Source: Natrinema caseinilyticum (GTDB lineage: Archaea > Halobacteriota > Halobacteria > Halobacteriales > Natrialbaceae). Taken from it: a stretch of DNA of 64,000 nt. This document shows positions 18,530 through 21,583 of this stretch, one piece after another. The notes beneath the pieces were generated by a model that searched no databases, was not told where the DNA came from, and was given only the letters and a program-made list of their open reading frames with translations. How positions within the stretch are numbered: the first letter of the stretch is position 1; each line of letters starts with the position of its first letter. Location of the stretch: assembly GCF_024227435.1 (NCBI RefSeq), contig NZ_CP100445.1, positions 3,593,369 through 3,657,368 on the forward strand, in the 5' to 3' direction. A program made the position numbers and the translations under genes.

Positions 18530-18613
18530 GGTGGGGTGGCAGAGCGGCCTAACGCGCCTGCCTTGAGAGCAGGTGGCTGTCAAGCCTCATGGGTTCAAAT
18601 CCCATCCCTACCG
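18530..18613 (+). tRNA. tRNA-Ser (anticodon UGA)
   Basis: 84 nt. The acceptor arms GGTGGGG and CCCTACC pair with one G-U wobble and G is the discriminator. The anticodon stem CCTGC/GCAGG encloses CT-TGA-GA (anticodon 18564-18566). A long variable arm marks it as a class II tRNA, and the T arm is TGGGTTCAAATCCCA. No intron and no encoded CCA. A T-run follows at once (18614-18618). Its 3' end is repeated 143 bases downstream. Confidence 0.96.
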
Positions 18614-18734
18614 TTTTTCGTGAAAGAACACGACGAAGGTAGTGAGGAGTCTCTCGATCGAAAAACGAAACGGCGGGATTTGAACTACGGAAGACGCACG
18701 TTCGTGAGCGAAGCGAACGAAACCGTCTTCAGGT

Positions 18735-18760
18735 GGTTCAAATCCCATCCCTACCGTTTT
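18735..18760 (+). repeat. Second copy of the tRNA-Ser 3' end (att-like)
   Basis: 26 bases covering the T loop, acceptor 3' strand, discriminator and T-run (GGTTCAAATCCCATCCCTAC and on) are identical to 18592-18617. The flanks that follow each copy are also related: 18642-18690 and 18774-18818 share GTGAGGAGxCTCTCGA and more. A copied tRNA tail is the usual footprint of a tyrosine-recombinase attachment site. Confidence 0.7.
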
Positions 18761-19127
18761 GCGACGAACGAACGTGAGGAGCCTCTCGAGCCGAAAACGA
18801 TACGTTGGGACTTGAAGGACGGAACGAGGGTGCGAAGCGGACAAACGCACGTGAGAACCTCTCGGTGACCGTCACGTAAAAAGCGACGCGTAGATGGTGG
18901 AACGTGGATCGAGGCCGGCGGTGGATCGACACCGGCGTCGCTCGAGGGTACACCCACTGTAGACACGATTCGCACTCCGATCATGCCGACGGCGAGTCGC
19001 CTCGGTTCGACGACGTCAGCTCGGCGCGGCCGTCGGCTTCGTTAACCGGTCGCAGCGGCTCGAGGTGGCAGAAAACCGAAAACCGTGCGGGGAATTCGCG
19101 AGGCGAGCGGCGTTAGCTGAAAGAGAG
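18761..19127. other. Non-coding stretch downstream of the tRNA-Ser repeat
   Basis: No convincing gene. The first hundred bases are a diverged copy of the sequence that follows the tRNA itself. A still weaker third copy of the CGTGAGGAGCCTCTCG motif is seen at about 18850-18867. The rest shows no start with sensible codon use. Confidence 0.5.
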
Positions 19128-19190
19128 GGTGCTACGCCCCCGTCCTTGAGGAGCGACCGACGGGAGCGAGGAGGGCGGGGATACAGCACC
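19128..19190. repeat. Nested stem-loop resembling a TnpB-element end
   Basis: An outer stem GGTGCT/AGCACC (19128-19133, 19185-19190) encloses a GC-rich inner stem (CCCCCGTCCT with GGAGGGCGGGG) and the text CTTGAGGAGCGACCGACGGG. The organisation is the same as in the right end of the tnpB element 1.3 kb away. It may be the left part of this element or the scar of another one. Confidence 0.5.
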
Positions 19191-19260
19191 CGCACGATTG
19201 TCACACACCGTTACTCGCAAACACTTAATAAAACACACTTCATAGACGAAAGCAAGTCGC

Positions 19261-20538
19261 ATGGAGTACAGTCCACGATACCGTCTCTTTCCCACCACCA
19301 CCCAACGGGAGAGTCTCGACTGGACTCGTGACACCGTGCGACAACTCTACAACCACGCCCTCCACGAATTCGACAAGATACCAGAAGACGAGGGGACGCT
19401 TCGACAGCGCGTCTGGCACGTCCGCGACGAACTCCCACAACTCAAGCAACAGTGGACAGACCTCAAACAGGTCTACTCAACCGTCTTGCAGAACGCTGTC
19501 GAGCGTATCCGAACCAACATCACCAACCTCGGCACACTCAAAGCCAAGGGCTACGATGTTGGCTCGTTGAACTGGAAGTCACCGCGTGAGTACCGGAGTT
19601 TTACGTACCGGCAATCGGGCTTCGAACTCGACACGAAGAGTGGTCCGAGAGATCGAGCGATACTCCGCCTCACAAAAGTACGCGGTGAAACCATCGAAAT
19701 CCCACTCCGCCTTCACCGTGACCTTCCCGACCACGATGCTATCAAAGAAGTCACGGTGAAGAAAGAACCCACAGGAGCGTGGTACGCTTCGTTCTGCATC
19801 AGCACCGACACGCCAGAGAAACCAGACCCAGCGGACATTGAGCCGGAAGACACGGTTGGGATCGACCTCGGCGTTCTCACCTTCGTCCACGATTCGGACG
19901 GACGCTCCGTCGGTCGTCTTGACCTGTCTGCGGAGCGTGAGCGCCTCGAGCGCGAGCAACGCTCGCTTTCTCGCAAACAGTACGAGTCGAACAACTGGGA
20001 GACGCAACGGCGGCGAGTCGCGACGGTCCATGCTCGCATGTCGAACAAGAAGCGAGATTATAAACACAAGCTCGCGCACTTTTACACGACCGAGCATGAT
20101 GCCGTGTTCGTTGAGGATTTGAACGTGACGTCACTGCTTGAAGCCAGTGGCAACGCGCGGAACAAGGCCGAAGTCGGCTGGCGAAACTTCATTACGATTC
20201 TGAAACATCACGGTCGGAAGAACGGGTGTCACGTCATCGAAGTCGAACCGAGTGGCACGACGAAAGAGTGTGCATCGTGTGGCGTGGAGACTGAGAAGCC
20301 GGTGTGGGTCCGCGAACATTCCTGCCCGTCGTGTGGGTTCGAGTTGGACAGGGATTGGAACGCGGCGTTGAACATCCAGTCGCGTGGTCTGGAGAACCTA
20401 GGAGTGGTTCACTCCGAAGCAACGCCTGTGGAGACCGCGACCGCTGTGGATACTTCTGAAGTGTCTGCAAGTCGCGTCGTCGAAGCAGGAAGCCCCGCCC
20501 TCAAGGAGTCGCCAAAGGCGACGAGTAGGGCGGGGTAG
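19261..20538 (+). mobile_element. tnpB: TnpB, RNA-guided nuclease of an IS200/IS605 (IS1341-type) element
   Basis: 425 aa and apparently intact. The N-terminal wedge-like region is followed by the RuvC-like nuclease: Asp202 in VGIDLGVLTF, Glu285 in AVFVEDLNV, and the final Asp in ELDRDWNAALNIQ. A zinc ribbon lies between them (C337, C340, C355, C358). TnpB cuts DNA guided by an omegaRNA made from the element's own right end. No tnpA transposase is nearby, so this is a solo-tnpB element dependent on another transposase or immobile. The C-terminal 60 codons overlap the structured right end, as usual. ATG at 19261 follows an AT-rich promoter (CTTAATAAAA). Confidence 0.93.
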
Positions 20539-20541
20539 TTC
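20460..20541 (+). ncRNA. omegaRNA-like right end of the tnpB element
   Basis: Nested hairpins: CCCCGCCCT (20493-20501) pairs with AGGGCGGGG (20527-20535), enclosing TCGCC-AAA-GGCGA (20509-20521). It overlaps the tnpB 3' end, the position from which sense-overlapping RNAs of Halobacterium tnpB genes and omegaRNAs are made. The 5' boundary is my estimate. Sequence beyond about 20541 would act as guide, and here that is the 3' end of citE. Confidence 0.6.
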
Positions 20542-21583
20542 ACCGGTAGGAGAGTTCGAGGTCGCGCGCTCGAGAGAGCAGATCCGCGTCGTAGTACTCC
20601 TCGGTCTGGGACGGTCGGATGTCGTCGATCGCGCGGACCTGTCGAACCGTGTTGCGGAAGTTCTTGAACGTCGCTTCGTCGACCATCTGGCCGTCGATGG
20701 TGACCGCGCCGGTGCCCTCGCGTTTGGCCTCGTTGAAGCGCTCGATCTTGTGGACGTCGCGCTCGAGTTCGTCGGGGGTGGGCATGTGGACCGTGTTGGC
20801 CTGGATGGTCTGTTTGGGGTACAGCGACCAGGAGCCGTCGAGGCCGAGCATCGCTTCGTGTTCGACCTGATCGGCGTAGTCGTCGGCGTTGTAGTACGTC
20901 AGGCCGGCGCGTTCCTTGAACAGGTCGTCGAAGGGGCCGCCGATCGAGAGCAGGCCAGCGGCGCTGGACTCGTTCGAGAGAGCCTCGAGCAGGCCGTCCC
21001 AGCGGGGCATGCCGTCGCCGAGGTCGCGGCCGCCGAGTTCGGCGGCGTAGTCGACGGGACCGAAGACGAGTGCGGTGAGACGGGAGTCCTCACCGAACTT
21101 GGAAATTTCGCGCAGGTCGGAGCGGGCGCGGCCGGTTTCGATGATGATCGAGAGGCCGATCGAGCCGTCCTCGTAGCCGTGTTCGGCCTCGGCTTCGGCG
21201 ACGACCTCGGCGGCGCGCTCGACGTCCTCGAGGCGACCGACCTTGGGAACCACGACACCTTCGATCTCGTCGCCGATCTCGGCGACGAGTCGGTCGATCT
21301 GGTTGCGTCCCTTCTCGCAGTACTCCTCGTCCTCGTAGCTCCACTCGACGCGAGGCCAGATTTCGCCCGGGAAGTCGTACTGCGGGACCTTCTCGATGGT
21401 GTTCTCGAGTCCCTCGGCTTTCATGTCCGGGGCGGTCCCGTCTTCCATGTCGGGGACGAGCCAGTCGGGAGCCTGAAAGCCCTCGGCCTCGAGGGCGGAG
21501 ACGAGATACTTCGCCGAGTCCTCTTTGGGGACGGCGGCCGGTGCGGTCTGGAACGTGCGGCAGAGTCGGATATCGTCGGTCAT
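20540..21583 (-). CDS. citE: Beta-methylmalyl-CoA lyase (CitE-like)
   Basis: 347 aa of the HpcH/HpaI/CitE lyase family. Seen are the opening RLCRTFQTAPAAVPKEDSAKYLVSAL, DWLVPDMEDGTAP with the metal-binding acidic residues, VVVPKVGRLEDVERAAEVV, LSIIIETGRARSDLREI, and TALVFGPVDYAAELGG. In the methylaspartate cycle it splits beta-methylmalyl-CoA into glyoxylate and propionyl-CoA. It is the last gene of the minus-strand operon. Its TGA stop lies at 20540-20542, two bases beyond the tnpB stop, so the mobile element sits hard against its end. Confidence 0.9.
   Translation of the reverse strand: MTDDIRLCRTFQTAPAAVPKEDSAKYLVSALEAEGFQAPDWLVPDMEDGTAPDMKAEGLENTIEKVPQYDFPGEIWPRVEWSYEDEEYCEKGRNQIDRLVAEIGDEIEGVVVPKVGRLEDVERAAEVVAEAEAEHGYEDGSIGLSIIIETGRARSDLREISKFGEDSRLTALVFGPVDYAAELGGRDLGDGMPRWDGLLEALSNESSAAGLLSIGGPFDDLFKERAGLTYYNADDYADQVEHEAMLGLDGSWSLYPKQTIQANTVHMPTPDELERDVHKIERFNEAKREGTGAVTIDGQMVDEATFKNFRNTVRQVRAIDDIRPSQTEEYYDADLLSRARDLELSYR

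What the first reader, a model, noticed from the sequence alone, without database searches (positions are those of the whole stretch)
19128..20541. Solo TnpB element whose guide end runs into citE
tnpB is intact in its catalytic residues and zinc ribbon, lacks tnpA, and its nested-hairpin right end stops within a base or two of the citE stop codon. An omegaRNA from this copy would carry the 3' end of citE as guide, and the convergent transcript could affect citE expression.
Basis: partly seen in the sequence, partly recalled or inferred. Interest (0 to 1): 0.55.

Follow-up and report, generated by a model that had tools for sequence, protein, structure and literature searches.

The report
TnpB element replacing a gene's stop
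A small mobile element carrying an RNA-guided DNA cutter has inserted exactly on the stop codon of a metabolic gene in a salt-loving archaeon and supplies a new stop from its own end, leaving the protein unchanged; in a survey of the element's relatives, about a quarter of the insertions sit on a neighbouring gene's stop in the same way.

Summary
A TnpB-only IS200/IS605 element lies at 19117-20543, just 3' of a TTAG target (19113-19116), in a Natrinema-group haloarchaeon. TnpB is intact and no TnpA gene lies in the window. The right-end hairpins show strong covariation in 52 diverse relatives. "citE" is L-malyl-CoA/beta-methylmalyl-CoA lyase (mcl), in a methylaspartate-cycle cluster.

The right end does not merely approach the stop codon: it contains it. 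The target TTAG read backwards is C-TAA and the right end GTTCAC read backwards is G-TGA, so insertion turned ...CG|C TAA into ...CG|G TGA with the protein unchanged. One relative keeps the empty TTAG allele; its protospacer differs from the predicted guide at 1 of 20 bases. The predicted guide is antisense to mcl.

The arrangement recurs: 23 of 98 distinct family junctions lie exactly on a convergent gene's stop, including PCNA, AglM and RaSEA, against 28 of 331 TTAG sites in 464 kb of the own genome (p=1.5e-4). The excess over other intergenic TTAG is modest (p=0.015) and over near-3'-UTR TTAG not significant (p=0.49). I read it as TnpA target geometry plus tolerance at gene ends. Likely function is ordinary TnpB retention or homing. 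Regulation of mcl is untested.

The parts
19113..19116 (+). TTAG target retained in the left flank; presumed TAM; its reverse complement CTAA held the original host stop TAA
   Evidence: Common to the left junctions of the aligned family copies; the same TTAG sits at the end of mcl in the empty allele of genome G016.
19117..20543 (+). TnpB-only IS200/IS605 element
   Evidence: Similarity of 13 other G004 copies begins at or near 19113 or inside the element and ends at 20543 or within a few bases.
19136..19180 (+). left-end hairpin; the four bases 5' of it (19132-19135) are CTAC here, CTAA in 35 of 47 TTAG copies with a mapped left end
   Evidence: sequence and count
19261..20538 (+). tnpB, 425 aa RNA-guided endonuclease, catalytic motifs and zinc ribbon present; TAG stop at 20536-20538
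20422..20543 (+). predicted omegaRNA scaffold overlapping the 3' end of tnpB
   Evidence: conserved block and covarying pairs in 52 diverse right ends; expression not tested
20492..20535 (+). right-end nested hairpin
   Evidence: covariation, e.g. G-C/U-A/A-U at one outer pair and G-C/A-U/C-G at one inner pair
20539..20543 (+). terminal TTCAC; reverse complement G-TGA-A supplies the host stop codon TGA (20540-20542) in frame
   Evidence: GTTCAC ends 98 of 98 retained junctions (a G or A plus TTCAC was required for retention)
20544..20563 (+). predicted guide region, antisense to the last codons of mcl (length of 16-20 nt assumed from ISDra2)
   Evidence: sequence; matches among 29 genus genomes
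   Evidence: NF041626 620 bits
21632..27209 (.). rest of the methylaspartate-cycle cluster: 2-methylfumaryl-CoA hydratase, methylaspartate ammonia-lyase, methylaspartate mutase E and S (all minus), succinyl-CoA:mesaconate CoA-transferase (plus)

Best explanation
This is a TnpB-only IS200/IS605 element that was inserted, by a TnpA acting in trans, 3' of a TTAG tetranucleotide formed by the end of mcl on the opposite strand (C-TAA). Because the element's right end is TTCAC (G-TGA-A on the other strand), the lost stop TAA was replaced at the same codon by TGA, and the last codon changed from CGC to CGG, both Arg, so the enzyme is unchanged. The right-end RNA is predicted to carry the mcl 3' end as an antisense guide; with TnpB it would cut alleles that have TTAG plus the matching sequence and no element, so that repair copies the element back. 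Shown: ends, target, stop swap, a matching empty allele in one relative, an intact and constrained tnpB, a covarying scaffold. Inferred: trans TnpA, TAM identity, omegaRNA expression, cleavage and homing.
For: Ends from multicopy alignment. Empty allele in G016: TTAG then protospacer with 1 mismatch in 20, stop TAA, last codon CGC. All 27 other genus genomes carry mcl without the element at this site; in two of them TTAG overlaps the mcl stop: G016, and G018 with 5 mismatches. The four bases 5' of the left hairpin are CTAA, complementary to TTAG, in 35 of 47 TTAG copies, as expected if guide bases select the target as in IS608 (PMC5934647, passages). A related complete element with tnpA, tnpB and homologous ends exists in G016. 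tnpB at the same site in G000 and G004: dN/dS 0.118, dS 0.212, like mch 0.237, mal 0.214 and mamB 0.240, so long residence under constraint is plausible. The stop swap recurs in 23 of 98 junctions.
Against: No RNA, cleavage or transposition data. The two own-genome tnpA loci show no detectable match to this right end, so the mobilising enzyme in this genome is unknown. The copies at this site in G000 and G004 are not sisters in the element tree, which points to gene conversion or separate insertions and weakens the constraint argument. The window copy's left guide is CTAC, not CTAA. Only one genus relative of 27 has a credible target, so homing at this site has little to act on among the genomes searched.
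Confidence: 0.72

Rival explanations
1. Inert relic: the element is stuck, TnpB and its RNA do nothing here, and the open frame persists by chance or by gene conversion from active copies.
For: No matching TnpA element found in the own genome; the element tree is mosaic, consistent with gene conversion in multicopy genomes; the own genome also holds degraded TnpB fragments.
Against: Open frame with motifs intact and dN/dS about 0.12 against the copy at the same site. The own genome has only one full-length copy of this subfamily, so conversion from a sister copy is less available there.
Confidence: 0.22
2. Convergent antisense regulation: the tnpB/omegaRNA transcript or the RNP bound to the mcl end lowers mcl expression.
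For: tnpB and mcl stops are one base apart (20536-20538 and 20540-20542) and the predicted guide is antisense to mcl.
Against: No expression data. In the occupied allele the sequence next to the guide match is TTCAC, not TTAG, so the presumed TAM is absent. The same geometry occurs at many unrelated genes, arguing against a selected role at mcl.
Confidence: 0.08
3. Nuclease-dead TnpB turned transcription regulator (TldR type) acting on mcl.
For: A single copy next to a metabolic operon.
Against: The aligned RuvC motifs are present; relatives sit next to unrelated genes.
Confidence: 0.02
4. The family actively prefers stop codons as insertion sites (for example through transcription termination or exposed single strands at gene ends).
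For: 23 of 98 junctions against 28 of 331 genomic TTAG, p=1.5e-4; against other intergenic TTAG odds 2.3, p=0.015.
Against: Against TTAG within 150 bases beyond a convergent stop the excess is not significant (23:11 versus 28:20, p=0.49). Loss of insertions that damage genes or promoters could give the same pattern.
Confidence: 0.15

Closest known systems
Haloarchaeal IS200/IS605 (IS1341-type) elements, e.g. the ISHma12 family named in NZ_CP034941
   Same: TnpB, near-terminal palindromes, right end homologous to the query; solo tnpB copies outnumber tnpA in Natronomonas and Haloquadratum (PMC3119063, sections 27-29 read)
   Different: This copy lacks tnpA; the passages and sections I read there do not mention insertion on host stop codons
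IS608 of Helicobacter pylori
   Same: Insertion 3' of a tetranucleotide kept in the left flank; cleavage sites TTAC and TCAA (PMC5934647, passages) whose reverse complements G-TAA and T-TGA have the same stop-for-stop geometry (my inference)
   Different: Target TTAC instead of TTAG; carries tnpA; bacterial
ISDra2 TnpB and reRNA
   Same: TnpB homologous along residues 8-382; guide from the right-end flank, TAM equal to the insertion target (PMC8612924, passages)
   Different: Target TTGAT, whose reverse complement carries no stop codon, so no stop swap
Halobacterium salinarum sotRNA/omegaRNA
   Same: Haloarchaeal right-end RNAs overlapping tnpB, shown to be expressed (PMC12558985, section 3.3.3)
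   Different: Different host and element copies; expression of this one is untested

Membership tests
RNA-guided TnpB family (NF040570) | Score over the curated cut-off | tested here: met
   241.5 bits, cut-off 100
RNA-guided TnpB family (NF040570) | RuvC acidic motifs and zinc ribbon | tested here: met
   aligned to 8bf8
RNA-guided TnpB family (NF040570) | Guide-dependent DNA cleavage | not testable with these tools
   needs protein and RNA
IS200/IS605 element | Insertion 3' of a fixed short target without target duplication | tested here: met
   TTAG in 47 of 56 mapped left junctions, TTAC 6, TTAA 3 (the search pattern required TTA plus a base); empty allele shows a simple insertion
IS200/IS605 element | Subterminal hairpins at both ends with guide bases 5' of them | tested here: met
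   the window copy has CTAC where most have CTAA
IS200/IS605 element | Y1 transposase TnpA in the element | tested here: not met
   none in the element or window; hence a TnpB-only derivative, a recognised sub-type, not a complete IS605
omegaRNA | Conserved structured right-end RNA ending at the element end | tested here: met
   alifold consensus with covariation over 52 of 98 right ends, after dropping those at least 85% alike and any incomplete or with N
omegaRNA | Expressed and bound by TnpB | not testable with these tools
   no RNA data
TldR (nuclease-dead TnpB regulator) | Loss of RuvC catalytic residues | tested here: not met
   motifs kept

The most novel reading that the evidence does not exclude
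In this family, and possibly in other IS605-type elements with TTAN targets and TCAN right cleavage sites, the two cleavage sequences form a built-in stop-codon exchanger: any insertion at a convergent N-TAA stop restores N-TGA at the same codon. This lets the element occupy the very ends of genes, essential ones included, without damage, and gives TnpB a guide drawn from conserved coding sequence, which should widen the range of empty alleles it can home into.
Probability: 0.35. Interest if true: 0.72.

Novelty: new member of a known kind. Interest (0 to 1): 0.5.

Why it matters
It explains how TnpB-only elements can accumulate in gene-dense, GC-rich archaeal genomes: the target tetranucleotide is itself a stop codon on the other strand and the element brings a replacement. 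It makes a clear prediction (guide taken from conserved coding sequence, TAM overlapping the host stop) that can be tested in culturable haloarchaea, and warns annotators that the last codons and stops of many haloarchaeal genes belong to mobile elements.

Tried and rejected
Flank background: my first control, TTAG sites in the flanks of the elements, gave 19 of 637 convergent stops and p=3.7e-11 (a similar first version 20 of 558, and 30 of 515 by a simpler rule). I consider it too lenient, since flanks of mobile elements are poor in called genes; the 464 kb own-genome control (28 of 331) is the one to use. It mixes genomes, because the insertions come from many species and the control from one.

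Rows dropped: one search counts 50 unique of 53 junctions (9 gene-like). One search classified 36 of those 50; 12 are printed as left end not mapped and L107 and L120 were skipped without a line. One search took 137 sequences: 28 had no acceptable right end, 11 were duplicates of a junction, 98 remained. The left end was mapped by pattern in 56 of 98 and may be wrong in some, TTAA cases above all; the other 42 were judged from the right flank alone, which undercounts insertions inside genes. 13 of 56 with a mapped left end are convergent stops, 23 of 98 in all. Three of the 23 change the last codon TAC to TAG and so drop a final Tyr. The gene caller was my own codon-usage script; of ten of the 23 given to NCBIfam, seven matched (three, PCNA, AglM and RaSEA, aligned to the last profile position; 3 of 10 had no match). 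The last five residues of each protein were not compared with relatives except for mcl.

The right end is one inherited trait, so 98 copies ending GTTCAC are not 98 independent cases of stop mimicry; IS608 is the only second case I noted, and ISDra2 is a counter-example.

Annotated plasmids: I opened 8 of the 60 listed hits, mostly chosen because a second gene lay under the match, so they are examples and not a rate. Five show a convergent gene ending at the same offset (L297, L299, L300, L302, L303), one a same-direction gene whose annotated end lies at the left junction (L298), two other arrangements. L299 is in the same plasmid as L222 and is not independent of it.

In one search seven or more rows are wrong because minus-oriented loci were not turned; replace them. 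In one search the row called mrp-like used guessed coordinates, is out of frame and is ignored. One search's tree has some weak nodes (0.806 for window with L089).

Literature: searches found no paper describing IS605/TnpB insertion on stop codons; only open-licence papers are held, so this is weak evidence of novelty.

Full report
What is there. The window lies in a 4.77 Mb haloarchaeal genome whose genus mates include Natrinema gelatinilyticum BND6 (genome G004; the identification rests on matching contig lengths and coordinates). A 425-aa tnpB is open at 19261-20538. It passes the NCBIfam guided_TnpB cut-off and aligns to ISDra2 TnpB with its RuvC and zinc-ribbon motifs. No Y1 transposase is in the window.

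Exact ends. The own genome has one full-length copy of this subfamily, but G004 has many at 93-97% protein identity. Aligning 13 other G004 copies, the copy at the same site, and six from further genomes shows that similarity ends at TAGTTCAC (20543) and starts after a TTAG shared by the left junctions (19113-19116), with unrelated flanks. The element is therefore 19117-20543.

The stop swap. Its stop TGA (20540-20542) is inside the element. Joining the flanks gives TTAG|CGGTAGG, which on the mcl strand reads TAC CGC TAA; the occupied site reads TAC CGG TGA. All 27 other genus genomes searched carry mcl without the element at this site (stops). G016 has the predicted empty allele, TTAG followed by a protospacer with one mismatch in 20; G018 also has TTAG but five mismatches; the other 25 lack TTAG there. 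In a 22-base search of 29 genus genomes with up to 3 mismatches, six matched, all at the coordinates of the mcl end (one search read): the two occupied alleles, G016, and three with TCAG in place of TTAG.

Is it general? I collected 137 sequences (window, 56, 80), kept 98 distinct junctions, and called genes with a codon-usage script. In 23 of 98 a convergent gene ends exactly at the element's TGA. In the distance table, restricted to the 90 of 98 with a called opposite-strand gene, the offset of that stop is -4 in 20 and -1 in 3 (the TAC to TAG cases); no other offset below 150 occurs more than once. Host genes include a UspA-like protein, an SDR, a ZIP transporter, PCNA, AglM, RaSEA and a uracil-DNA glycosylase-like protein. 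Because the target is TTAN, a frame that meets the new TGA necessarily met TAA before, so the swap cannot truncate that frame, except for the loss of a final Tyr.

How surprising is the frequency? In 464 kb of the own genome, 28 of 331 TTAG sites are convergent stops, 147 lie inside called genes, 20 within 150 bases beyond a convergent stop, 135 are other intergenic and 1 is a same-direction stop. The insertions split 23, 14, 11, 48 and 2. The overall excess is 3.3-fold (p=1.5e-4); against other intergenic sites 2.3-fold (p=0.015); against near 3' UTR sites 1.5-fold (p=0.49). So TTAG availability and removal of harmful insertions explain much of it, and active preference for stops is not shown.

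Mechanism. The four bases 5' of the left hairpin are CTAA in 35 of 47 TTAG copies, complementary to TTAG. In IS608 such guide bases select target and cleavage sites (PMC5934647, passages), and its sites TTAC and TCAA have the same stop-for-stop geometry. A complete tnpA+tnpB relative with homologous ends is in G016, so mobilisation in trans is plausible; the own genome's two tnpA loci do not show this right end. The right-end RNA structure covaries across 52 diverse members. By homology to ISDra2 (PMC8612924, passages) the bases after 20543 would be the guide and TTAG the TAM; the occupied allele has TTCAC there and would be spared.

Age and constraint. tnpB at this site differs between G000 and G004 with dS 0.212 and dN 0.025, dN/dS 0.118. 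dS of mch, mal and mamB is 0.21-0.24, of mcl 0.10. That fits residence since the species split with TnpB kept functional, but the two copies are not sisters in the element tree, so gene conversion or separate insertion cannot be excluded.

Verdict. The finding holds with corrected coordinates and gene name. The element is a member of a known kind. The stop exchange and its recurrence are what I would pass on; I found no description of it in the open-licence papers searched.

Noticed in passing
window 18592-18620 and 18735-18763: The 3' end of the tRNA-Ser(TGA) gene plus flank (29 bases) is repeated 143 bases downstream with 28 of 29 identical: possibly the att remnant of a tRNA-targeting integrative element.
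   Followed up: partly
L052/L100 and L089, L090 (G004): The copies at the same mcl site in two species are not each other's closest relatives in the element tree and the elements look mosaic, suggesting gene conversion among copies.
   Followed up: partly
G004 (Natrinema gelatinilyticum BND6): About 17 near-identical solo tnpB copies of this subfamily, several with in-frame stops, against one full-length copy in the own genome: a recent expansion without tnpA inside the copies.
   Followed up: no
window, TTAG sites: TTAG is scarce: 49 matches against a mean of 124 in shuffles.
   Followed up: no
L221, about 3000 bases downstream of the element: An element of this family ends on the stop codon of the PCNA sliding-clamp gene.
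   Followed up: partly
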